Shown piece by piece: positions 1,071-63,339 of a stretch of 64,000 nucleotides of DNA. The DNA is taken from contig NC_053048.1 of assembly GCF_003473485.1 (NCBI RefSeq), forward strand, positions 37,506,755 through 37,570,754, in the 5' to 3' direction. Positions within the stretch are counted from its first letter, which is position 1, and each line of letters starts with the position of its first letter. Below the pieces are notes generated by a model, which saw nothing but the letters and a program-made list of their open reading frames with translations, ran no database searches and was not told where the DNA came from. Source of the stretch: Medicago truncatula (lineage: Eukaryota; Streptophyta; Magnoliopsida; Fabales; Fabaceae). The position numbers were made by a program, and so were the translations under genes.

Positions 1071-2819
1071 TCAACATGGAGATTCATTGTGAGGCTTAGA
1101 AGTGCCAGCTTGTGCGCGTCTTGCCTTTAAATCATCGAGATAATTTTGATAGATGTAGGAAGCAAAACCCCATAAAGCCATAAGCATAGAAATTATCTTC
1201 ACCCCATTCATCTTATCATGAAAAACTATAACAGCCGCAATAGGAGTAATAGCCAAAGACACAGTGCTGATAACATTAGAGTAGAGAGAAGACACCAAGA
1301 AAATCAAGCCAACCACACCAACAGAACAAACCTGCCATGCTATTGCTGTCCAAACCAATGTCATTAAATAAGCAACTTCTCCTTTCTGAAAACTCTTCAT
1401 TTCTTCGTGCAAACTATGCCATTCACCACTCGCAAATAGGCCTATTGTGGATGCGCAAGTGGCAACAAGTGAAGTATAGATTTGCATTTCCAAAACAACA
1501 GAAAATGTTTCCTTTTTCAGAACCTTCTCAAAGGTCAATTGCATGAGGGAAAGCAAAAGAGAGTAAAGTGCAGAAGCTCCAAGTGTACAAAGGAAACCAA
1601 CAACGTATTTTCCCTTCGGGATACCAGAAGGTGTGTCCGAATCTTCATTGACAGCAAGAAGTGAAGAAGATAAAGTGAGAACCACGGTCGAGTTTACAAT
1701 CAAAGCAGTGAACTTTTGAGAGTTGATAAAGTATGAGAAAATTGCATTGAAAGCTAATTGAGATGCACAAATCAGTGCATAGGTAGAAGCAGAGAGGTAC
1801 AAAAGTCCTTGTGAATACATCATATTGTCAGCAGCAATCATGATTCCAAGAACAAAATATATCAAAGCGATGAGTTTGATGGAAGGAGGAACATAAGAAG
1901 CTGAAACCTCTGAAGAAGAAGAAGGAATTGTGAATAACGGAATGAGCAAGACTGGGAAGGCAATAGTTTGGACTAAAGTAGCCATCCATGTACTATTTCC
2001 ACCTTGATCATAGTAAAACCTTCCAAGGATAACTGCAGCAGATTGTCCAACGATGAGAAACATTATGCTGAGTCCCACCAGAAACCACCATTGCCATCGC
2101 TTGTATTTGTTAAACGGTAGTTCATTAATTGTTCCGGCTATGATCATCGGTTCTTCATTATCTGTAATCGAAAGCAACATTAAGTCACTTGTTTTTAAAT
2201 GTAACCGCAGAAACATCAAGTAAACGTAAAATGCAGGACAGAAAAACTAAAGTCGAAAGAGCCAATTTTGGAATTTCGGAATAACAAGTTTGTGAATTGA
2301 GTAAGTTAAACTTAGTTTATCCATCTCAATTATAGATACTTTAACCGATAAGATCTCATGAGCTTAAAGCTAATTGAAATTGGAACTTAAATTCATGCAA
2401 AAGTACAGCAGCAACAGTAAAATCATACATAAATTAGCAGTTAACAGCTATATATATATATATATATAAATATAAATGTTCACTGAGAGAATCATTCATT
2501 CATATTAGACGTATATGATGGAAGGGTAAAAACAGAGTTAACCCAGTTTCCATGCAGTAAATCCAAAATTTGATCCTGATCAGTTCTCCAATAACAAATC
2601 AATGAGTTCAACTTGGTCCTTGCAAAGGGTAAGTATTGAACTATGTTGATGTAAAAGAAAGTGAAACCTAGCAGAAGAATAATATTGGCGTGACATATAA
2701 TCAGAACTAAAACGAAAAACACGAATTAATGAAATAAACATAAGCGATTCCCTTAATAATGAATGAATTAAAGCATCCAAACAAGGAGAAAGAGAGAGAG
2801 AGGTATATATACCTGTCAT
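1071..2819 (-). CDS. Purine permease (PUP family, drug/metabolite transporter fold)
   Basis: Two coding exons on the minus strand: 2819-2813 (only ATGACAG, then a GT donor) and 2161-1071 (after an ATTACAG acceptor), joined as MTDNEEPMIIAG for 365 residues. This start is preferred over the longer unspliced frame from 2219 because the split joins cleanly and gives the usual PUP length. After a short N-terminus comes the PUP hallmark NKYKRWQWWFLVGLSIMFL and about ten hydrophobic segments, including QSAAVILGRFYYDQGGNSTW and a later LYLSASTYALICASQLAFNA. Family members are plasma-membrane proton-coupled importers of adenine, cytokinins and related bases or alkaloids; the substrate here cannot be read from sequence. 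The intron (2812-2162) carries a GA-rich run and a (TA)n run. Confidence 0.92.
2449..2469. repeat. (TA)n microsatellite in the purine permease intron
   Basis: About nine to ten TA units in a row, inside the single intron of the permease gene. Confidence 0.8.
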
Positions 2820-14538: not shown

Positions 14539-14852
14539 GGCTTAATTGCACTTTTGGACCCCTATCTTTTTAAAAGTTGCGGTTATGGACCCCTAACTAA
14601 TTTAAATACAAAACAGCCCCCTATGTTTTGATTCTTTGACAGTTTTGGACCCCCAAGGCAAAAAATAAATAAAAAAATTGACACGTGGCACCTCACTTAG
14701 GGTGCCACGTCAGCGTTGACCGAGTCAACAATGGACTGGGGGTCCAAAACTGTCAAAGAATCAAAACATAGGGGCTGTTTTGTATTTAAATTAGTTAGGG
14801 GTCCATAACCGCAACTTTTAAAAAAATAGGGGTCCAAAAGTGCAATTAAACC
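14539..14852. mobile_element. 314-bp MULE-type MITE with 9-bp target duplication
   Basis: Long inverted ends: GGCTTAATTGCACTTTTGG at the left, and the right reads CCAAAAGTGCAATTAAACC. The arms extend over more than 100 bp each (both carry the GACCCCTAACTAATTTAAAT motif). TATAATATA lies exactly at both flanks (14530-14538 and 14853-14861). Long inverted repeats with a 9-bp duplication are the mark of Mutator-like insertions. It codes for nothing. Confidence 0.85.
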
Positions 14853-33822: not shown

Positions 33823-36458
33823 TCAATTATGTCCCTCTCGCGCTACGATAAGTTCTTCCAACTTACCAGCATCACCATTATCTGTAAGTATCATTATCTC
33901 ATCCTCAGTTATGAAATTATATCTACTCCCAATGTCTCTTAGAAACTGGTAGACTTCAAACATAGTAGGCCTCTCCTTTGGAGTTGATGAAACACAGTTA
34001 CATGCAACCTTTAGAAACTGAAAAAGTTCATGATCAACGCCTTTTCCAACTAGTGATTCATCGATAGCGTCTTTTAGTTTAGAGTTGACAGAGAGCTGCA
34101 TAATCCATTCTACCAAATTTCCTTTAAAAGTTTCTGGAGCTTTTGCTATATGCGTAGGTCTTTCACCTGTTACCAACTCAAGAAGCACAGTTCCGAAGCT
34201 ATAAACATCCCCTTTAGGTGTAGCCACCAAAGTTGTTGTATACTCAGGAGCAACATAACCTAAATCACCAAACTCACCATTTACAAAAGTACTCAAATGG
34301 GTATCGATTGGGTTCATCAATCTTGCAAGGCCAAAATCAGAAATTTTGGGCTCGAAATCTACATCCAACAAAATGCACTTTGAGCTTATGTTTCGGTGGA
34401 TGATACGAGGATTGCAGTTGTGATGAAGCCATGCGAATCCTTTGGCTGCTCCAATTGCGATTTTGAGTCTTACAGACCACTCCATAGTGCACTCGCCAGC
34501 ATCAGGGTGTAGTTTGTCATGAAGAGTACCATTTGGCATATTTTTATAGACCAAAAGCCTCTCCTTTTTGGCCAGGCAAAAACCTAAGAGAGGAACCAAG
34601 TTACGATGTCGCACTGTTCCTAGTGTGGCCATCTCAGCCGTAAATTCTTGCTCCGAGTGTTGAGATTCCAGTAATCTCTTAACCATGAGTGATGTGCCGT
34701 CGTCAAGGACAGCTTTGTAAACAGTTCCAGATCTTCCAGTCCCAATAACATTGCTTTTACTGAAGTTATTAGTCGCCTTCATGAGATCACTCAAGTTCAT
34801 TTTTGAAATTGACTTCTCAAACATTGAAACCTGATGTGAAGTCCAACACAATTAGCCTTAATATATACAAAAATTAATGCTGTCTATATCTATATGAGAA
34901 ATTAAACTGTCAGAAACTATTGCCTTCTTTTCTAATGTCTCGTGAAGAAATGCATCTTAAATGTGTTGGGCCCAGAAAATGTACTGGCTTCCTATATTTG
35001 ATACAACAGTAAGACTTTTTCAAAATTAATATAATCAACAATATTAAGATATATTATGTTTTAAAATACATTACAATTGAAAGAGTAAATATCCAAATTG
35101 GTCCTTGAAATTGTAGGACTGTCACATTATCAATATTGCAAAATGAACATTGAAATTGCAAAATTTAAATCATATTCATCCCTCCATTCGTGTTTCAGGG
35201 ACTAGATCGACATTAAGTTGGTATTATCGGGGATGAATTTGAAACGAAGTGAATAATGTTAGGGATGCATTTGATATCATATCCAGATAAAGGAACAAAC
35301 TTCATTAATTTTTTGCAATTCCTTCTTAAAAAAAACATATATTTTGCAATTCCAAGGATCACTTCGGAATTTTGATAATATGGGGGACTAGGTTAATGCA
35401 ATAGTATAAAAAAATATATAACACAACAAAATGTTATCCAAAAAATGCCTTTCTACTTGAAGGTGTTTTCCATAATTGAATACTTTCGAAAGAAAAAATC
35501 TATGTAAGAAGAAAAAAGAATATATGCTCTATGGATAATATAATCCAATATGTAATAAGAACTAATACTACTTTTCATCTATCTAAGAACATACAAGCCA
35601 TGCATCAATTTAGCTTACCTTTATTTTCTTGGTTCCCTTAAGAATTCTCGCCCATTTATTTCCTTCAGGATCTTCTTCCTTTTTCCTGTGAGAAACACTG
35701 CGTACAAAGAAGAGCAATCCAACGCCTACTCCTAATGCTGCAAGAGTCGCACCACCAACAGCTGCTCCAGCTATAACTGCAGTGTTAGTCTTCGAAGACT
35801 TGCTGCAAGCCTCTAAAGGAGCTCCGCAGAGTCCCGAATTATTTGCAAAACTATCTGCCGTAACTATACCTTGTTTAATAAAAGTTGGAACTTGTCCTGA
35901 CAAAAGATTGTTGGAAACACTAAACGTCTTAAGCCGCGTGAGTCCACCAAATTCTAGAGGAATTTGACCGGTGAGTTGGTTTTGGTCAAGTTTAATACTA
36001 TTAAGATAGGTACAATTAGCAAGCGAGACAGGGATCTCTCCAGTGAAATCATTTGAAGATAGATCAAGAGTGGTCACAAAGCCAATAAGGGTAGATACAT
36101 CGGCCGGAATTGATTTAGAGAGGCTGTTCAACGAAAAATCTAATCCAGTTAAGCTCGAGCAATTTTGAATACCGCGAGGAAACTCGCCCTTAAGTCCCAT
36201 ATTGGAAAGTTTGAGATTCAAAACCCTATTTTCATCAGGATGCCAACATTCAACACCAGTGAACTTGCAAATAGACCCTTCAGTTTTGTTGTTGAAATCC
36301 CAATTCTGCAAATAATTGTTTGGGTCTTTAAGTGATTCTTTTACCCTTTTTAAGCATAAGATGTCAGTCTCGGTACCGTAGGTAATGCCACAACTAATAA
36401 CTAGCAGTGAGAAACTAACAATGATAGGAGTACTGAAAATTCTGCTACTCAAAACCAT
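33823..36458 (-). CDS. BIR1: BIR1-type LRR receptor-like kinase
   Basis: Exons 36458-35619 (280 codons) and 34830-33823 give 615 residues. The Met at 36458 is chosen over the upstream frame Met because it starts a good signal peptide ([21 protein letters not shown]). Then come the LRR N-cap with [16 protein letters not shown], about five short LRRs, one TM helix near 227-252 and a kinase domain from about residue 300. VAIK-type Lys331 and DFG445 are present, but the catalytic loop reads HRN (425-427), not HRD, as in the BIR group. The C-terminus ends [11 protein letters not shown]. The sequence closely follows Arabidopsis BIR1 (At5g48380), which binds BAK1 and restrains immune receptor signalling and cell death at the plasma membrane. 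A 5' UTR intron (about 36970-36583) is likely. Confidence 0.95.
35085..35405. mobile_element. Foldback MITE in the BIR1 intron
   Basis: Left TCCAAATTGGTCCTTGAAATTG and right AATTCCAAGGATCACTTCGG with inner matching GGGATGAAT phrases; same general class as 18007. It lies in the single coding intron (34831-35618). Confidence 0.45.
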
Positions 36459-37070
36459 CTTCACCAAGATCTCAAACACACAAAAAAAAGCTAAGAACAA
36501 ATTATCCAGGTACACTTCACTCAGATTGGTATCTAATGAAATCTGCAGCACAAACTATAGAGTCCATAGCATAGCACTGTTCCTAAAACAAAATTCAATA
36601 AACAACATCAACTCAATTCAGCACTTCACTATACCAACTAAATCAACAACCAAGTAAGCCATAAACAAAAAGGAACAATAAAAGCAACAATTTTTTTTTC
36701 CTTTAAGACCAAAATACACTGTTCACACCATAAAGGCAAAAACTATACTATACAGATGAAAATAAACAATAAAAAAACAATTTTTTTAGAAACCCAGTAA
36801 AGTTTGAATATGCAAGCATCAATATAAGCAAAAATTGAAGAAACACAGATTCAAAATAACATGAATTTTGCATATGAGTATTCAAATACACACCTTGGTT
36901 ACTAAAAAACCCAATTAAGGAAACAAAAGTGTATGAAACAAAAAAAGAGTTGTGAAGAAGAAGGAAAATACCAAGTGAGTCAAAGAAAGAAGATGGGAAT
37001 GGATTGGAGTTTTCCACAAGGTGAGGTGATGAGAGACAAGACAAGAGACCGGGAAGGGAAGACTTGGAAC
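36459..37070 (-). other. BIR1 5' leader region with probable leader intron
   Basis: On the minus strand, ACTTG|GTATTT near 36970 is a good donor and TTTTGTTTTAG|GAAC near 36583 a good acceptor, so the 5' UTR is probably split. The open frame at 36748-37044 is not convincing as protein. Confidence 0.4.
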
Positions 37071-43783: not shown

Positions 43784-43854
43784 GAATGACTAGAGTTTTG
43801 CTGTTCCCACATATAGTATGGCTGTGCCACACCAGTAATTTACGCAAATACCCT

Positions 43855-43874
43855 CTCGGCAGTTAACTGCCGAG
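43855..43874. repeat. Perfect 20-bp palindrome in the MULE terminus
   Basis: CTCGGCAGTTAACTGCCGAG is its own reverse complement. Variants recur at 43892-43911, around 44170-44225 (GCCGAGGAAAAC type) and at 48318-48390 in the right end. Such clustered subterminal repeats are where MULE transposases usually bind. They are rich in CG and so also methylation targets. Confidence 0.75.
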
Positions 43875-44405
43875 GTTTTTAGGAAACCGGCGGCAGTTAA
43901 CTAACTGCCGAGGGAAATGTTTCATCCGATGAAACAGCTACCTGCTCCCCCTGCACACTATTTTTCATCACCTTCATTTCCAACCTCATTTCAATCCCAA
44001 AATCCATTTTTTCTATAATCAATTTTTGATCCAAAATCATTCAAGCATCAAGCATAGGAGGTATCAACACACTATTGACGTAAAAAAACAGGTATTGTGC
44101 GTTTTATTTGAGTCATTTTTTGGGTGTTTTAGGGGTATCTACGTCAGTTACGTAGAACCCTGTCATGGGAATCCTCTGCCGAGGAAAACTTCGGTTGTTT
44201 AGTGCCGAGGAAAACCTCGGTAGCTAGGTACCGAGGAACTCTTGGTGAAAATTTTCACCACGAAAAAATGGCAGCCACTGCCAAATTTTCAAAAAAAAAT
44301 TTCTTTTGTTTTTTTTTTGTTTTTTTCGTTTTAATTCATTATGGCATTGATGTTTATGCATTACTTAGTTGTTAATTCATATTTATGTGTTGTTTAATTA
44401 TAGTA

Positions 44406-47364
44406 ATGGTAAAGAATGCGAAAGATGTTCCGGGAGAGACAAAAGAAAATTTTGTCGAAAATTCCGGAGATGTCAAACCGCCTAATTTTGAAGCGAAAAC
44501 AAACATAGATGAAGCTTCCGTCCATGTTGAAGCTTCAAAGTATGTTGGCCGCTCCGGTTTACTCCCACTTCAACCCCACGAGGTCGACACGGCTAAGTTT
44601 TTTTTCAGACGACGTTAAGTCGAAAAATAGAGATGAATTGCTTGAGTGGGTGCGCCGACAAGCAAATAAGGCGGGATTTACCATTGTCACACAAAGATCA
44701 AGCTTGATCAATCCAATGTTCCGGCTAGTGTGTGAAAGGAGTGGAAGTCACATAGTTCCGAAAAAAAAACCGAAGCATGCGAACACGGGCTCAAGAAAAT
44801 GCGGTTGCTTATTCATGATTAGTGGATATCAAAGTAAGCAAACAAAGGAATGGGGATTGAACATTCTTAATGGAGTTCACAACCATCCCATGGAGCCGGC
44901 TTTAGAAGGACACATTCTTGCCGGTAGATTAAAGGAGGACGACAAGAAGATCGTACGTGACTTGACCAAGAGCAAGATGCTTCCAAGAAATATTTTGATA
45001 CACTTGAAGAACCAGATACCACATTGCATGACAAATGTGAAGCAAGTGTACAATGAACGTCAACAAATATGGAAAGCAAATAGGGGTGACAAGAAGCCGT
45101 TGCAATTTCTAATCTCGAAGTTGGAGGAGCACAACTATACTTATTACTCAAGAACACAACTTGAAAGTAATACTATTGAAGATATTTTTTGGGCTCATCC
45201 AACATCCATTAAATTGTTTAACAATTTTCCAACGGTTTTGGTTATGGACTCCACGTACAAGACCAACATGTATAGGATGCCAATGTTTGAGGTAGTTGGG
45301 GTGACTTCAACCGATTTGACATATTCGGTTGGGTTTGGATTTATGACACATGAGAAAGAAGAAAACTTTGTTTGGGTTTTAACAATGTTGCGTAAACTTC
45401 TTTCGTCAAAGATGAATATGCCTAAGGTGATTGTTACCGATAGGGATATGTCTTTGATGAAAGCGGTTGCACATGTTTTTCCGGAAAGTTATGCATTGAA
45501 TTGTTTTTTTCATGTGCAAGCTAATGTTAAACAAAGGTGTGTCTTGAATTGTAAATATCCTTTGGGCTTTAAAAAGGATGGGAAAGAGGTGAGCAATCGG
45601 GATGTGGTGAAGAAGATAATGAACGCATGGAAAGCTATGGTTGAATCTCCCAATCAACAATTATATGCAAATGCATTAGTGGAGTTCAAAGATTCATGTA
45701 GTGATTTCCCAATTTTTGTAGATTATGCCATGACCACCTTGGATGAAGTGAAGGACAAAATTGTGAGGGCATGGACAGACCATGTGTTGCATCTTGGTTG
45801 CAGGACCACAAACAGGGTCGAATCGGCCCATGCTTTGTTGAAGAAATACTTGGACAATAGTGTGGGTGATTTGGGTACTTGTTGGGAGAAAATACATCAC
45901 ATGTTGTTGCTCCAGTTGACCGCTATACAAACATCCTTTGGTCAAAATGTTTGCGTGTTGGAACATAGATTCAAAGATGTCACTTTGTACTCGGGGTTAG
46001 GTGGTCATGTGTCTAGAAATGCTTTGGACAACATTGCTTTGGAAGAAAAACGTTGTAGGGAAACATTGTGCATGGACAATGACATTTATGGTTGTGTTCA
46101 AAGGACATCTTATGGACTACCATGTGCATGTGAAATTGCTACAAAACTCCTTCAAGAGAAGCCAATTTTATTGGATGAGATATACCACCATTGGCTTCGG
46201 TTATCTATGGGTGAACAAAGTAATAAAGATGCTTTTTGTGTCGAGGTTGAGTTGAAGGCTATTGTAGAGCGTCTAAAGAAACTCCCTTTCCAAATGAAGC
46301 TTGAGGTCAAAGAGGGTTTGCGGCAATTGGCATTTCCTGAAACCACCTTGATGTCTCCACCACCACGAAAAGTACCAACCAAGGGAGCAAAGAAAAAAGT
46401 TGACATTGCGAGGTCTAAAGGAAAAATTACATCGACTAGTCGGATCCCTTCTTCTTGGGAGGTTGTTGATTCCCAAAATCCGGATAGCCAACCGTCACCA
46501 TCACCAACTACATCATCATATAAAAGGAAAAAAGGTGCTCGTCTTGGTAAAACATCACTTTCCCCACTTCCACCACCTACTCGGTATCCAAAGCCTAAAG
46601 CTATCCCGGTTATGCGTCCTATTGATTATATGCCACGCTTCATGCTTCCATTTATTGAAAAAGTGGTGCATGTTATCGGCGATGGACATTGCGGATTCTG
46701 GGCTATAGCGGAGTTCATGGGCTTGACCGAAAAAAATCATCTCATGATCCGTACACATCTTATCCAAGAGTTGATGGATCATAGAGATGATTATGTTGAA
46801 GTATTTGCGGGTGAGGATCGTTATAACTACATTTTAAACGGGTTACATCCTCCCGCAAATACAAAAACTTGTGCACATCTTGTTGATAAGTGGTTGACAT
46901 TTCCGGACATGGGACACATTGTTGCTAATTATTACAAAATGTGTGTGGTTGTGTTGACAAATCTTGAAGTTGGAAAATCGGAATCGTTTTTCCCACTAAG
47001 AGGGCCACCACCGCCGGGTAATCAAAAAACTCTCATCTTGTGCCTTGGGGCAATTCCAAATCATTTTGTGCTTATTTCCTTGAAGAATGGTTGTCCACTA
47101 CCTCCATCATCTACGGAGTGGCACAATCACAAGAAAGAAGATGCGGTGACTTGGGAAGATGAGTATTTGGATCGACATGACTTGTTCCGAAAGCTCATGG
47201 CTATTGAAAGTGGAAACAAACCGTGCAAACCACAAAAGGAGTCAAACAAAGCGGCGCCTATTTTGTTGGACACTCCCGAAAAACCAAAGCAACAATTTGA
47301 AGTTATTGCGGAAGATGAGGAAGATTCTATGTCACTTGATCTTCTCCAATCACTTGGTCTTTAA
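44406..47364 (+). CDS. MULE transposase fused to an OTU-like cysteine protease
   Basis: The 951-codon frame starts at 44509. An upstream frame from 44406 (MVKNAKDVPGETKENF...) looks like the natural N-terminus and meets it at an 8-T run (44598-44605), implying a one-base slip or an assembly error. Numbered from 44509: a FAR1/WRKY-like zinc region (CERSG, RKCGC, GVHNH) near residues 65-125; MULE DDE catalytic residues D247 (VMDSTYKTN), D311 (VTDRDMSLM) and E438 (NRVESAHA); a SWIM-like GCVQRTSYGLPCAC; a long basic, Pro/Ser-rich linker (about 620-710); then an OTU domain with Asp-Gly-x-Cys728 (IGDGHCGFWAIAEF) and His852 (PNHFVLISL). OTU enzymes cleave ubiquitin chains. The tail is acidic. Fusions of MULE transposases with peptidase domains (ULP1 in Kaonashi-type elements, OTU in others) are known in plants. 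Confidence 0.9.
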
Positions 47365-47493
47365 TGAGTGATTTTTTTGTCGGTGTTAGTTCTTTTTTTT
47401 TTGTAGAAATTACACCGATGTATTTTTTTGGGTCGAAATTGTAACGTCAATTTTTTGGTGGCCAATATATAACTAACATTATGTAATTTATAT

Positions 47494-47494
<1 letters not shown>

Positions 47495-47538
<44 letters not shown>
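47495..47538. repeat. (TA)n microsatellite between the two MULE frames
   Basis: About 20 TA units in one run, at the junction between the transposase 3' end and the second frame. Confidence 0.85.
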
Positions 47539-47540
<2 letters not shown>

Positions 47541-47684
47541 AATATGATTTTTATGTGGAGAAAATAATGCAATACTAATTTATAGCTTTTTAATGTTTTC
47601 CGCATTTCATTTATTCGTTATTACATTCCATTTAATTTTGTTCTAATATATGATTCTTTTGTTACAAAATTTTTCAAGTGAGAC

Positions 47685-48029
47685 ATGTCTGAGGTTGCAC
47701 AAATTGAAGGGCGGGTTAGGTACTCCGCGTTTAAAAAGACGGTTAAGGTTATGATAACGCCGACGGACTCTCTTGACAATTTGAAAGCACAACTTAACAC
47801 TTATTTTGAGCATCTTGGTGAAAATCAATATACACGTCACTTGTTTGGTCAAATGCCATGCATAGACCTAGGAGAAGATAGAGATGAATACGCATGGAAA
47901 ACAGCAAGCTATATGCCTTTGCTTATTCGCGACGACGGCGACGTCGGATTTATGTTTCGGAATATGGTGGAAGACAATATATTATATATGTATGTTCGTT
48001 CCATATGTAATTGCATTGAATGTAAGTAG
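47685..48029 (+). CDS. Second MULE frame, 114-residue accessory protein of unknown function
   Basis: An intact frame starting MSEVAQIEGRVRYSAFKKTV and ending SICNCIECK, 320 bp after the transposase stop and inside the element. It has an alternating hydrophobic/charged start (RVRYSAFKKTVKVMITPTDS) that could form a beta-rich fold, a helical middle (LDNLKAQLNTYFEHL), an acidic patch (LGEDRDEYAW) and an IRDDGDVGFMF stretch. I recognise no domain. Second genes of other MULEs include mudrB of maize MuDR and the VANA/VANC anti-silencing genes of Arabidopsis VANDALs, so a helper or anti-silencing role is possible but only inferred. Confidence 0.7.
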   Translation: MSEVAQIEGRVRYSAFKKTVKVMITPTDSLDNLKAQLNTYFEHLGENQYTRHLFGQMPCIDLGEDRDEYAWKTASYMPLLIRDDGDVGFMFRNMVEDNILYMYVRSICNCIECK

Positions 48030-48631
48030 GGATTTAATTTAATGATGTGTAATGAGTAGTTTAATTATGGACACTTTGTAATGTTTTGATGAATTTCAAA
48101 CGTCTGTTTAATTTTAACCAAATGTCGGTTTAATTTAATTATGAACAATTGTAAAAGATATTCTATTTATCTTCATTATGTCCGAGTTTCAATCATACAT
48201 ATGAATTATATTACCTTTGGAAATGCTCTGGTTTAATTACAGGTAAAAAATGGCCGAAAAAATGGCTTGGAAATACTTAGAATTATGCAGAACCTGCTGT
48301 CTGCATAATCAAATTTCCTCGGCAGTTAACTACCGAGGTTTTCCTCGGTAGTTAACTGCCGCCGGTTTCCTAAAAACCTCGGCAGCATACTGTCGAAGGG
48401 TATTTTGGTATTTTACTCGTGTGGCACAGCCAAACAACATGTGGGAACAGCAATACTCGAATGACTATTTCTGCAATTTCAAGAAGTATAAACAAATACC
48501 TACTATTCAAGTATCAAGTGTGCAATCTTGGCCATTAAATTGTTTAATATTAAATCTATGATGAATTTGCTTCTTTTGCACCATACCAAAGAAGATGCAT
48601 TTTGGCATGCTAGATGCCACCCTCTCTAAAG

Positions 48632-55585: not shown

Positions 55586-55994
55586 GGTCAAATGCATATA
55601 AAGGTCTTTTGAGTTTTTCGTTTTTCCTAAAGTGGTCTTTAAGTTTCAAAAGTCCCAAACAAGTCCTTTTAGTTGTTGAATCGTTTCAAACAAATCCTAT
55701 TGTAGATAGCATAGTTGGTAATTGCTTCCTTGAACTCATCTTTGGTACCAAATCTGGCTCCTAACACCCACTTAAAATTAGTCATCTTTTTAGGCATTGC
55801 AAATGATGGATAATGCTCTTTGTTGCTATCATCTGAATCATCACCATCATCCTCTAAAAGGACTTGTTTGAAACGATTCAAAAACTAAAAGGACTTGTTT
55901 GGGACTATTGAAACTTAAAAGACTTGTTTGAGACTTTTGAAACTTAAAGGACCACTTTGGGAAAAACTTAAAGGACCTTTAGATACATTTAACC
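55586..55994 (-). mobile_element. 409-bp deleted MULE with transposase remnant and exact 9-bp duplication
   Basis: The ends GGTCAAATGCATATAAAGG and CCTTTAGATACATTTAACC are inverted, with several alternating copies of an AAAGTCCCAAACAAGTCC-type phrase along the arms. TAAAAATTT flanks both sides (55577-55585 and 55995-56003). The core minus-strand frame (55881-55669) reads PKKMTNFKWVLGARFGTKDE then FKEAITNYAIYNR, the N-terminal MuDR/FRS DNA-binding region of MULE transposases, preceded by an acidic EDDGDDSDDS stretch. Nothing of the catalytic core remains, so it is an internal-deletion derivative of a coding MULE. Confidence 0.85.
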
Positions 55995-59780: not shown

Positions 59781-61394
59781 AGATAAAATAAAAAATAAAA
59801 AGAGAATACATGTTTTTTTTTTCTTAGAAAGACAAAATACGCAAAAAAAAAATGACAAAATACAAATTATGCACACAAGTTAAAATGTGAATTAAAATGG
59901 TGTAGTTTTAGTGTAACGGAAAAAAAAAATGGTGTAGTTTTTGTATATGGTATTTTGAAATAACATATAATCAAAATGAATCAATAATTATTCATAACAA
60001 ACACCAGTGGTGTAATGGTTCTTAGCACCTTTGAGAAGTTTGTGACTGTCTGGTTGCCTGTTCGATTCTCAACAACGCTGGTTTTCAATTTTCGGAAGAC
60101 TTTGCAGAACATGATTCCGGTAAACCTTAAAAACCCATAAAATCTCAAACCTCAATCAACTATTCGGTGAATTATTAAAACTCAGAAGCGTTTTTCAGCG
60201 AGAGAGGGCTTATGAACACGTAAGGGGTGGGGTATAACTTCCTCGATAGAGTGTATATTTGATTTTTTTTTTAAGAGAGATTTCACTCTTAGTATTTTGA
60301 TAATTTTTTTTTTTAAATATAGTATTTAGATAAATTAAAATTTAGGTAGCAAAAAACAGAGAATTAAAATTTAAGCTATTTAGATTTTGAGGTTCGTCAT
60401 AGTGCAGAAAGTCTCAAGACTTGCAAACATAACAAATATCGTTGTATACCATATGATTTAATTTTGTATTGCTTTTCTTCTATGCCCAAGTTAGCCATTT
60501 TTTATAGAGGTTAAATAAATATATAAGAAAAAATAAAAATTAATTGTGGTCTTGACAACTTTTATCGTTAATAAAACTCCATTTGTGCTTGTTTACTACC
60601 CCCTCCGTCCCAAATTGTATGTCGCTTTGGAAAAAAAATTTGTCCCAAATTATATGTCGCTTTACAATACCAATGAAATATTTATATTACTTTTCCTATT
60701 ATATCCTTAACTATTAATTACTCTCTCTTCTTTCAATTATTTCATTTATCTTTTCCATACCATTTATTAGGGATAATTTTGTAAAACAACTCATAATTTC
60801 ACTCTCCCACGCAATATTAATTAATTTCTTAAATCATCTATCATACACAATTAACCATAATTTTTAAATGTATCTATGCACATAAATCATGGTTAATAAA
60901 TAAGATGCATATTTGAACACATGAAAATAATTTAAACTTGAAAACAATTTAGATGACAATCGAGGATAAAGGCATAAAAAAAATTAGAGGTTAAAGACAT
61001 TAAAATTGTTGTTGACAACTTTTAGTTGAAGATTAGATATTTTTTTTTTTTTGGTCTTAGTCGAAGATTATTTTAGTTACCATGCATTGTAACATTCATT
61101 AACCATCGACAAAACATAATTAATTTTATATTTAAATTATACTAACGGTTAAATTTGATATATATTTTTTTGGGTTGAAATAACATAGCTCTAATTTTTT
61201 AATTTTTTCAAAATAACACCATTCTAAATTTTCCCCTAAAAAAATTTAAAACAGCTCTAATTTTTTATTTTTTATTTTTGTCGACAACAGCTCTAAATTT
61301 AGTACAATGTTGAACGGGTTAAAAGATTAAACCTAAAAAATAGGGATAAAAGAAAGAAAACGACAAAAAGGTAAAGAGAAAAACCAAATTCAAA
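59781..61394. other. Intergenic stretch with a tRNA-like relic and a MITE fragment
   Basis: 60003-60082 has a Pol III-like A box (GTGGTGTAATGGTTCTTAGC) and B box (TGCCTGTTCGATTCTC), probably a SINE relic of another family. At 60598-60665 a CCCTCCGTCCCAAATTGTATGTCG phrase and its direct repeat mark a Stowaway-type MITE end. The rest is AT-rich. Confidence 0.45.
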
Positions 61395-61402
61395 ATTCCC
61401 GC
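61395..61402 (+). promoter_or_regulatory. E2F-type site just upstream of ZIP4
   Basis: ATTCCCGC fits the plant E2F consensus WTTSSCSS and stands 8 bp before the ATG. E2F sites mark many S-phase and DNA-repair genes. A role for this meiotic gene is inferred. Confidence 0.4.
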
Positions 61403-61409
61403 CAGAATA

Positions 61410-62728
61410 ATGCGAATTGCAGAGATATCCTCACCGGAGCTCCGAACACTCCACGGCGACAGCGACGATCATCACATCCTCTCCCAAATCGAATCAATCA
61501 TCAAGCAAATTGAATCTCACTCCGTCAACAAACAACCACCGGAAACAACCGTCGTCAATCTCCGGCAATGTCTAACGCAACTGAGTCAACTCGCTCCATT
61601 TTCCAACTCACTGAAGCTTCAGATTTGGAAACTCAGCTACCGTCTCTGGAACGTCTGTGTCGATATCTCAAACACCGCTTCCATCCGCTTTTCATCGTCC
61701 TCCACCACCGTCGCCGGCGAAAATCAGGCAGAACTCCGTCACTTGACCGCCGACCTACTCTCAATCGCCAGTGATGTTACTGGAATTCCTTCACCGGCGA
61801 TTAAATCAGCGTCGTTCTACTACAAGACTGGTATGTTATGGCATAACCTCCGGAAATTCGATCTCGCCGCGAAATGCTACGAACGAGCCACTGATCTGGT
61901 TTCAAAACTCGATATAGCTTCGATAACAGACGCCGGAGAGAGAAAACTGCTTTTAGATCTGAATTTGGCTCGGTCCCGAACAGCTTGGGAGGTTCGGGAT
62001 CAGAACCTTGCTATTGCGTTACTGAACCGAAGCAAAAGCATGGTTTCTGGTTCGAGTGAGAATTACATGGAACTAGCGAAGCAGTTTATGTCGTTCGGGA
62101 AATGTTCCCTCGCCGCGAACAGTGATTTGAGCGAGGCGTTGAAGTTGATGAACGAGGCGTTGGAGAATTGTGAGAAGGGATTCGGTGCAGCGAGGACACG
62201 GGAAGAGAAGGTGGAGATTCGAGGTTTGAGGTGGAAGGTTTTGAGGTTTATAGCGGCGATTCATTTGCAGAAAGAGGAATTTGAGAGTGTGGTTAAGTGT
62301 GTGAAGGTTTTGAGAGATTCTGCTGAAGGTGGTGATGATCATCCAAGTCTTTCTGTTTTGGCGATGAAGGCATGGTTAGGGTTAGGGAGGCACGTCGAAG
62401 CGGAGAAGGAATTGAGGGGAATGGTGATTGATAGAGGGATTCCAGAAGGTGTTTGGGTGTCTGCTGTGGAGGCTTATTTTACGGCAGCAGGGACCGCTGG
62501 GGCGGAGACGGCGAAAGGGGTGTTTTTAGGGCTGTTAGGTAGGTGTCATGTTAGTGCTGGTGCCGCGGTGAGGGTGGCGAGTAGGGTGCTCGGAGGCAGT
62601 GGAGAAGGGAGTAAAGTGAGGGCTAAAGTGGTTGCTGAGCTTGTGTCTGATGAAAGGGTAGTGGCGCTTTTTGCAGAAAAGGATGCTGCTAAGGATAGAA
62701 CTGCAATGCATGCTGTTCTGTGGAATTG
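61410..62728 (+). CDS. ZIP4: ZIP4/SPO22 meiotic crossover protein, N-terminal half (gene continues past right edge)
   Basis: Exon 1 codes 439 residues plus two bases, ending at CTGTGGAATTG|GTATGA. The unspliced frame runs on to 62816 but its tail ([15 protein letters not shown]...) is intron read-through. It starts [12 protein letters not shown] as plant ZIP4 does and contains TPR-like helices ([62 protein letters not shown]). ZIP4 is the TPR scaffold of the ZMM group that makes class I crossovers in meiosis I. Arabidopsis ZIP4 is about 930 residues, so roughly half is here. The next exon, expected to complete a Cys codon, is not found in the remaining 1.2 kb. Confidence 0.88.
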
Positions 62729-63245
62729 GTATGATAATGTTATTACTTTTGGGTTCATTTCTAATCTGGTTCTTTTGCTAGCTGCGTATTTGTATAGATT
62801 TGAATGTGGTTTGTGATTGTTTTAAGCCATTTGCATGATGATACTGTGGGGTGTGTCTTAAACAGTTTAACTTCAAAAATATAACTCAATGGTTGTTATC
62901 TTAATGTTTTGTCATCCTAAATGTTTTCACAAGATAATATGTGCCAAGTGAGTGATTAAATGTGAAAAATGTTTTTGTAAGTTATGAAACTGCAAGCAAA
63001 GTATATGGGATAGCTTTCTTGGTTGAAGTTGAACTGATCTAAGAGGATATTCAATATAACCAAATCACTGTTCATTTCTTTGCTTAATGGATGTGATGTA
63101 AAAATACATATATTGTGGGTTCAGTATGGCCAATAAGCTCCCTTTTTGTGGTTTCCATCTCACTATGCAGTATGCAAGTGAAACATTATTCTGGGAAGAG
63201 TCTTCCCATTGCCTTTTCTATTTGATTAAACAATTATTACTCATC

Positions 63246-63339
63246 CCGACCTTAGCTCAGTTGGTAGAGCGGAGGACTGTAGTTGGTAACATGCCAAATA
63301 GCCATCCTTAGGTCACTGGTTCGAATCCGGTAGGTCGGA
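63246..63339 (+). tRNA. tRNA-Tyr (GTA) with a 21-nt intron
   Basis: Acceptor arms CCGACCT (63246-63252) and AGGTCGG (63332-63338) with discriminator A. A box TTAGCTCAGTTGGTAGAGC, anticodon GTA at 63279-63281, intron 63283-63303 after G37, and B box GGTTCGAATCC. Plant nuclear tRNA-Tyr genes are normally split at this place. A T-run right after (63341-63349) is the Pol III stop. It lies on the same strand as, and probably within an intron of, ZIP4. Confidence 0.93.

What the first reader, a model, noticed from the sequence alone, without database searches (positions are those of the whole stretch)
43793..48458. Young OTU-MULE with an exact 9-bp target duplication
The window holds a 4.67-kb Mutator-like element with matched ends, an exact GAATGACTA duplication, a transposase with all three DDE residues (D247, D311, E438) and a C-terminal OTU-like protease with Cys728 and His852 in place. 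Peptidase-fused MULEs are known in plants, but what the peptidase does is not. An OTU enzyme could remove ubiquitin from the transposase or from histones such as H2B, and so lift silencing. That link is inference.
Basis: partly seen in the sequence, partly recalled or inferred. Interest (0 to 1): 0.75.

Follow-up and report, generated by a model that had tools for sequence, protein, structure and literature searches.

The report
Jumping gene with deubiquitinase-like domain
This is a recently moved plant jumping gene whose transposase carries a domain resembling ubiquitin-cutting enzymes, kept by evolution almost as carefully as its DNA-cutting core; it also has a second small gene and hairpin ends that match a catalogued plant 'microRNA'.

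Summary
Window 43793-48458 (4,666 bp) is a Mutator-like element (MULE) with an exact 9-bp duplication and 62-nt inverted ends. A 951-aa frame joins a zinc DNA-binding domain, a DDE core and an OTU-like cysteine protease. It is young: 14 of 29 other fetched copies differ by at most 1.5% (mismatches only). Cys728 is kept in 29 of 30 copies, His852 in 30 of 30. OTU homology rests on profiles, not a fold. 'Deubiquitinating H2B lifts silencing' runs against reported plant data; protecting the transposase is likelier, but unproven.

The parts
43784..43792 (.). left target-site duplication GAATGACTA
   Evidence: 17 of 21 copies with both ends located have a perfect 9-bp duplication
48459..48467 (.). 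right target-site duplication GAATGACTA
43793..43854 (+). left terminal inverted repeat
   Evidence: 62 nt, 85% complementary to right end; 15-mer TTGNTGTTCCCACAT has 489 matches in the genome, 1 for the reversed control
48397..48458 (-). right terminal inverted repeat
43841..43925 (.). left subterminal palindromes around CTCGGYAGTTAACTRCCGAG; MIR2629-like hairpin
   Evidence: Rfam RF04063 hits, 47.5 bits E 5.3e-10 (-) and 40.2 bits E 1e-7 (+), both below its gathering score of 60; DNA fold z -7.9
44176..44238 (.). second cluster of left subterminal half-sites (CTCGGYAG, CCGAGG)
   Evidence: DNA fold z -3.0
48306..48376 (.). right subterminal palindromes; MIR2629-like hairpin
   Evidence: Rfam RF04063, 56.9 bits (+) E 6e-13 and 55.6 bits (-), gathering score 60; DNA fold z -10.2
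44406..44618 (+). family N-terminal frame of ORF1 (MVKNAKD...), closed in this copy after a longer T run
   Evidence: 3 of 28 readable copies have the longer run
44509..47364 (+). ORF1, 951 aa in this copy: transposase fused to OTU-like protease
44623..44892 (+). zinc DNA-binding domain, AFT/FAR1 type (residues 39-128)
   Evidence: Pfam AFT 2.4e-7; FAR1 7e-5, below cut-off
45106..45948 (+). DDE transposase core (residues 200-480; D247, D311, E438)
   Evidence: Pfam MULE 6.6e-27; D247 in 30 of 30, D311 in 29 of 30 (1 gap), E438 in 29 of 30 copies; dN/dS 0.445 over 32 copies
46429..46653 (+). Pro/Ser-rich basic linker (residues 641-715), weakly constrained
   Evidence: dN/dS 0.714 over 32 copies, 0.963 without the sister family
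46654..47148 (+). OTU-like cysteine protease domain (residues 716-880; D725, C728, H852)
   Evidence: profile to OTUD5 E 0.0016; Pfam OTU matched by 6 of 8 members at E up to 10, best 0.0019; dN/dS 0.518 over 32 copies, 0.728 without the sister family
47149..47361 (+). C-terminal tail, no constraint seen
   Evidence: dN/dS 0.947
47685..48029 (+). ORF2, 114 aa, possibly ubiquitin-like/PB1-like
   Evidence: 114 of 150 scored genome matches have no stop in the matched stretch, hand count; dN/dS 0.544 over 44 copies; weak match to one MuDR-type N-terminal domain

Best explanation
A recently amplified OTU-fused MULE. Shown: ends, duplications, recent copies, a DDE transposase joined to an OTU-like domain in one frame, constraint on that domain comparable to the DDE core when a sister family is included, a constrained second gene, and recurring palindromes in the ends. 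Inferred: the N-terminal zinc domain brings the protein to the palindromic ends; the C-terminal OTU, on a flexible linker, removes ubiquitin from the transposase or from proteins at the ends, so protecting the transposition complex from host ubiquitin-dependent turnover; ORF2 is a small beta-grasp adaptor that helps the process. When the ends are transcribed they fold into hairpins and yield the small RNAs catalogued as miR2629, which feed host silencing.
For: Copies and duplications. OTU dN/dS 0.518 (bootstrap 0.39-0.62, 2dlnL 22.5 against 1), DDE 0.445, linker 0.714, tail 0.947 over 32 copies. Pairwise dN/dS of the window copy against L056, L057, L058: OTU 0.31-0.39, DDE 0.28-0.31. Catalytic residues. 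A sister family with 51-55% identical DDE (L059) and 44-45% identical OTU (L059, L060) keeps the Asp, Cys and His. OTUD5/OTUD3 profile match. ORF2 constraint, 0.544. The 8-mer CTCGGYAG is absent from the middle of all 17 copies in which located both ends. MIR2629 over its gathering score at the ends of 10 of 20 copies scanned, of 30 fetched.
Against: No fold: the single-sequence model of the OTU region is poor (pLDDT 42.6). OTU Pfam scores are under the curated cut-off. Within one family alone OTU omega is 0.728 and not clearly below 1 (2dlnL 3.5, bootstrap up to 1.006, set B). Pairwise, the linker is as low as the OTU in two of three close pairs (0.26, 0.37) and against the sister family (0.31 each); L050 gives OTU 0.51; two sister copies give OTU 1.57 between them (few changes). 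Sister copy L061 has Asn in place of the Asp, and L050 has lost the His. Copies were chosen by similarity to the window protein, which favours conserved ones. By eye none of the 67 MIR2629 places listed genome-wide lies in a fetched full-length copy. Nothing here shows the substrate, expression or transposition today.
Confidence: 0.45

Rival explanations
1. The OTU acts on chromatin at the element (histone H2A or H2B ubiquitin) to change silencing.
For: The protein carries a DNA-binding domain and would sit on its own ends (inference). VANDAL MULEs use a sequence-specific anti-silencing protein that binds repeated short motifs in non-coding parts (PMC5735166, passages), and this element too has repeated motifs in its ends.
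Against: H2B deubiquitination by UBP26 is reported as needed for silencing, the opposite sign (PMC5776116, PMC3950621, passages). The VANDAL motifs are arrayed in one orientation; here they are palindromes. No chromatin data here.
Confidence: 0.2
2. The OTU domain is a protein-protein or ubiquitin-binding module or a self-processing protease rather than a deubiquitinase of host targets.
For: OTU-like folds can bind without cutting, and some viral OTUs also cleave polyproteins (recalled, from no call). The weakly constrained linker could hold a cut site (inference).
Against: The residues expected for catalysis are kept: C728 in 29 of 30, H852 in 30 of 30, D725 in 30 of 30, and Asp and Cys in 8 of 8, His in 7 of 8 aligned divergent sequences.
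Confidence: 0.2
3. The OTU is hitch-hiking cargo with no role, kept only because the copies are young.
For: Copies are recent and most are broken: 5 of 30 keep the family frame of ORF1 without stop or indel. Within-family omega is only weakly below 1 (set B).
Against: OTU omega 0.518 when the sister family is included, with tail 0.947 in the same protein as internal control; both families keep the domain and, in most copies, the catalytic residues.
Confidence: 0.12
4. MIR2629 is a host microRNA gene whose hairpin the element captured, not the reverse; or it belongs to other elements that only share these ends.
For: MIR2629 is listed as a known miRNA and reported as differentially expressed in nodule senescence (PMC9189404, passage). 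By eye none of the 67 listed genome-wide places lies in a fetched full-length copy, and their scores (up to 81.9 bits) exceed those of the copies (up to 67.2).
Against: GGYAGTTAACTRCCGAGG has 1,715 matches (a full palindrome counts on both strands; 0 in the reversed control), and 226 places carry the half-site 27-57 bp inside the end 11-mer (0 in control). A sequence of this number placed at transposon ends is a transposon feature.
Confidence: 0.15

Closest known systems
Ulp1-carrying MULEs (Kaonashi/KIU in Arabidopsis; melon, rice, grapevine)
   Same: plant MULE carrying a Ub/Ubl-type cysteine protease; role described as unknown (PMC13317346, passages)
   Different: here the protease is OTU-like, not Ulp1, and is fused to the transposase; KIU is described as one of three genes of non-TIR MULEs, whereas this element has 62-nt TIRs
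MuDR-6_HM (Hydra Mutator element)
   Same: a Mutator element listed with 'Ovarian Tumour Gene' (PMC6446971, table passage)
   Different: a cnidarian lineage; in the table passages seen, the plant clades list FAR1, SWIM, CCHC, C2H2, PMD or DUF, no OTU
Ginger1 transposons and animal Helitrons with OTU domains
   Same: an OTU domain in a transposon protein (C-terminal in Ginger1), with a suggested role of the ubiquitin pathway in transposition (PMC2836005, passages)
   Different: a different transposase superfamily
Jittery/FAR1-type plant MULEs
   Same: FAR1-related N-terminal domain, MULE DDE core
   Different: adds OTU and ORF2; no SWIM Pfam hit here
VANDAL elements with VANC
   Same: MULE with an accessory gene and repeated short motifs in non-coding parts (PMC5735166, passages)
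   Different: ORF2 has no Pfam match and was not compared with VANC; motifs here are palindromes in the ends
Rfam RF04063 MIR2629
   Same: hairpin sequence matches the model end to end
   Different: catalogued as a microRNA; here part of a transposon end

Membership tests
Mutator-like elements (MULE) | MULE-type DDE transposase | tested here: met
   Pfam MULE 94.3 bits, cut-off 27.6
Mutator-like elements (MULE) | about 9-bp target-site duplication | tested here: met
   exact in window; 17 of 21 copies perfect
Mutator-like elements (MULE) | terminal inverted repeats (usual, not universal) | tested here: met
   62 nt, 85%
Jittery/FAR1-type plant MULE | FAR1-type N-terminal zinc domain | tested here: inconclusive
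   FAR1 23.9 bits under cut-off 28.1; AFT 31.4 over cut-off 21.6
OTU cysteine proteases | DGxC and His motifs in place and conserved | tested here: met
   D725 30/30, C728 29/30, H852 30/30; Asp and Cys 8 of 8, His 7 of 8 aligned divergent sequences; L061, not in that alignment, has Asn for the Asp. Motif recalled as that of the family
OTU cysteine proteases | sequence score over Pfam gathering cut-off | tested here: not met
   window 13.9 bits against 23.3; 6 of 8 members match PF02338 at E up to 10, best 0.0019; profile hits OTUD5 E 0.0016
OTU cysteine proteases | OTU fold | tested here: inconclusive
   single-sequence AlphaFold2 model pLDDT 42.6, not usable
OTU cysteine proteases | ubiquitin cleavage | not testable with these tools
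   needs biochemistry
Ulp1-MULE (Kaonashi) | Ulp1/C48 protease domain | tested here: not met
   no such Pfam match in ORF1 or ORF2 at E up to 1
VANDAL/VANC anti-silencing gene (for ORF2) | homology to VANC | not tested
   no VANC sequence was fetched; ORF2 has no Pfam match, 0 of 8 members
MuDR-type N-terminal PB1-like domain (for ORF2) | profile similarity over the domain | tested here: inconclusive
   against L070: hhalign score 24.06, probability 17%, confident core of 20 columns; 1 of 300 shuffles reaches it; 42 ORF1 segments reach at most 16.3. Against L069: 7.8, no similarity. BLASTP against the L066 piece: none; profile against it: P 2.9e-4, 41%
Rfam MIR2629 | score at or over gathering score 60 | tested here: inconclusive
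   window 56.9 (E 6e-13), below; 10 of 20 copies scanned at or above

The most novel reading that the evidence does not exclude
The element encodes both halves of a private ubiquitin-type system: a transposase-tethered deubiquitinase-like OTU and a separate small ubiquitin-fold (PB1-like) protein that docks on it to regulate or target it. The element's hairpin ends produce the small RNAs that the plant's microRNA catalogue calls miR2629, so its activity is read out in published small-RNA data.
Probability: 0.1. Interest if true: 0.85.

Novelty: new variant of a known kind. Interest (0 to 1): 0.52.

Why it matters
What proteases carried by MULEs do is an open question. Here a young, multi-copy family gives a direct test: in the likelihood comparison the OTU part is constrained close to the transposase core while linker and tail are less so or not at all, so it should be doing work for the element. 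The hairpin match gives a practical check on the annotation of miR2629, which one published study treats as a known microRNA and reports as changing in nodule senescence (PMC9189404, passage). The conserved ORF2 adds a second protein, without a Pfam family, to test.

Tried and rejected
Folding the OTU region and ORF2 from single sequences gave poor models (pLDDT 42.6 and 38.5). A Foldseek search with the ORF2 model gave 51 matches, none at E <= 0.001, and is not used as evidence. The ORF2 profile hit to polyubiquitin (best E 1.7e-4) is a sum over nine repeats of 2.7-2.9 bits each, so I treat it as a lead, not evidence. A spliced 3' end of ORF2 (donor GTAAGT, acceptor TTACAG) looked attractive, but the donor is changed in five of the fourteen listed variants, presumably the divergent copies; dropped. 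The H2B anti-silencing idea was set back by the reported sign. Whether the sister family has ORF2 stayed open: its 3' flank was not fetched. In the listings of the paper searches for an OTU-MULE in plants and in the passages opened I saw none named; most listed papers were not opened. Babu et al. 2006, which I recall as treating MULE domain fusions, is not held. Prior description in plants cannot be excluded. Counts of changes on internal against terminal branches were not made (one search failed). Two dN/dS scripts gave no values (one search stopped after the tree; one search did not read the values) and were redone.
Full report
What was checked. The element is there as described. Its ends are at 43793 and 48458, the 9-bp duplication GAATGACTA is exact and the inverted ends run 62 nt at 85%. 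The end 15-mer occurs twice in the window, at the two ends (expected 0.02), and has 489 matches in the genome against 1 for the reversed control. The genome is held as G000, 429.9 Mb; the sizes of its eight large contigs are those that I recall for Medicago truncatula A17, but no call names the species.

Copies. Searching the genome with the transposase gave 1,791 loose candidates, of which 48 were scored. The 30 best became loci. Of these, 21 had both ends located: 17 perfect 9-bp duplications, 2 with one mismatch, 2 with 8 or 9 mismatches; one copy (L023) was dropped because a neighbouring element's end was picked up, and 8 lacked an end. By whole-element comparison 14 of 29 copies differ from the window copy by at most 1.5% mismatches (gaps not counted; L023 over 81% of its length), the nearest by 0.73%, so the family moved recently.

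The coding part. The 951-aa frame carries AFT- and MULE-type domains. In the family frame the protein is longer at the N-terminus; this copy and 2 others of 28 readable ones have a longer T run there, so the first about 65 residues are out of frame here and translation would have to start at the ATG at 44509. The zinc domain, DDE core and OTU are all downstream of that point. Of 30 copies 5 (L010, L011, L013, L017, L018) keep the family frame of ORF1 without stop or indel.

Is the C-terminal domain an OTU? The window sequence alone scores 13.9 bits against a Pfam cut-off of 23.3. A profile of eight sequences, the window's and seven relatives down to 44% identity, hits solved OTUD5 at E 0.0016 and 0.0019 and OTUD3 at 0.0064; the next hit, an unrelated toxin chain matched over profile positions 36-96, is at 0.031. 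Six of the eight members match Pfam OTU at E up to 10, at best 0.0019. D725, C728 and H852 are kept in 30, 29 and 30 of 30 copies. Among divergent sequences Asp and Cys are kept in 8 of 8 aligned and His in 7 of 8; L061, not aligned, has Asn for the Asp. The fold could not be confirmed. I take OTU-type as likely, about 0.9, with an OTUD-like motif order.

Is it maintained? Over 27 within-family copies omega is DBD 0.48, DDE 0.53, post-DDE 0.37, OTU 0.56 (2dlnL 7.6), but N-terminus 0.99, linker 0.91, tail 1.31. Over 32 copies, 28 of the fetched 30 plus L056, L057, L058 and L059 of a sister family, omega is DDE 0.445, post-DDE 0.425, OTU 0.518 (2dlnL 22.5), linker 0.714 (2dlnL 3.2), tail 0.947. 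Without the sister copy all five values rise, OTU to 0.728 (2dlnL 3.5, bootstrap 0.56-1.01) and DDE to 0.643, as expected when most copies are dead. Pairwise estimates of the window copy against L056, L057 and L058 give OTU 0.31-0.39 and DDE 0.28-0.31, but the linker is also low in two of these three pairs (0.26, 0.37; 1.07 in the third); L050 gives OTU 0.51 and linker 0.69. Against the sister copy L059, synonymous change is near saturation (dS 1.2-2.4), and OTU 0.31, linker 0.31 and tail 0.37 do not separate; between the two sister copies L059 and L060 OTU is 1.57 on few changes. So the separation of OTU from linker and tail rests on the maximum-likelihood sets, not on every pairwise test.

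The second gene. It has 403 loose candidates in the genome, 150 scored; by hand count 36 of 150 have a stop in the matched stretch, and 8 places, the window's included, encode an identical protein. Omega over 44 copies is 0.544 (2dlnL 21.3); over the 27 family copies alone it is 0.707 and not significant. No Pfam family matches any of 8 members. A MuDR-type transposase of the same genome (L070) has an N-terminal domain whose comparison with the ORF2 profile scores better than 299 of 300 shuffles, with a confident core of only 20 columns holding the shared DVxFMF; another such domain (L069) shows none. A detached PB1-like (ubiquitin-fold) domain is my reading, about 0.5; PB1-like is a recalled name.

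The ends and MIR2629. CTCGGYAGTTAACT has 5 matches in the window, all in the element's ends, 0.03 expected with up to 1 mismatch. The shorter CTCGGYAG is absent from the middle of all 17 copies in which located both ends; one of these (L018) has none at its right end either. The Rfam search of the element matched RF04063 MIR2629 at both ends and on both strands, best E 6e-13, 56.9 bits against a gathering score of 60. Of 20 copies scanned (of 30 fetched), 10 pass the gathering score, always near an end. Genome-wide, GGYAGTTAACTRCCGAGG has 1,715 matches (a full palindrome counts twice) and 226 places join the end 11-mer to the half-site at 27-57 bp; the reversed controls give 0 and 0. Of the 26 MIR2629 hits above cut-off on contigs C1-C3, by hand 5 overlap or lie within 40 bp of an exact element end; 21 do not (the list reaches past all 26, that stops within C2, and inexact ends were not sought). 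By eye none of the 67 places listed lies in a fetched full-length copy, and their best scores are higher, so the catalogued hairpins may sit mainly in other, perhaps shorter, elements with the same ends. A study of M. truncatula nodule senescence lists miR2629 among known miRNAs that change (PMC9189404, passage). I infer that these are small RNAs of the transposon group; the reads themselves were not seen.

How it may work. The best reading is a transposase that carries its own deubiquitinase to its ends. Protection of the transposase or of the transposition complex fits the fusion to the transposase. The alternative that H2B deubiquitination lifts silencing is at odds with UBP26, whose loss is reported to raise H2Bub and lower non-CG methylation and silencing (PMC5776116, PMC3950621, passages).

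What is known. Ulp1 MULEs are described (PMC13317346, passages), OTU in Ginger1 and Helitrons (PMC2836005, passages), and an OTU note for a Hydra Mutator element (PMC6446971, table passage); the plant clades in the table passages seen carry no OTU. The listings and passages that I saw name no plant OTU-MULE, but I recall that such domain fusions appear in protein databases, so I call it a new variant of a known kind.

Noticed in passing
window 14611-14780, both strands: Rfam MIR2619 matches on both strands (182 and 123 bits), i.e. a long palindrome; perhaps another miRNA entry that is a transposon hairpin.
   Followed up: no
window 55808-55901 (-) and 63246-63339 (+): Rfam MIR5292 precursor and a tRNA.
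   Followed up: no
window 1071-2246 (-), 33823-34851 (-), 35610-36554 (-), 61350-62816 (+): Host-gene frames around the element: purine transporter, kinase and leucine-rich-repeat frames (perhaps one receptor-like kinase), SPO22/ZIP4-like meiosis protein (Pfam).
   Followed up: partly
L027:5647-5758 (-): A snoZ152 snoRNA gene lies about 275 bp beyond the right end of one copy.
   Followed up: no
G000:C2:5394735-5394799 (L023): Two element ends stand back to back, their end 15-mers 35 bp apart and pointing outward into two neighbouring elements.
   Followed up: no
ORF1 near residue 85 (window about 44760-44770): A poly-A run is a second place where 1-base length differences shift ORF1: 6 copies with +1 and 4 with -1 of 30.
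   Followed up: no
window 48014-48036 and 48228-48250: A possible intron at the 3' end of ORF2 (GTAAGT ... TTACAG), kept in most copies listed, donor changed in five listed variants.
   Followed up: partly
L059, L060, L061: A sister OTU-MULE family in the same genome: DDE 51-55% (L059), OTU 44-45% identical (L059, L060), same domain order where present.
   Followed up: partly
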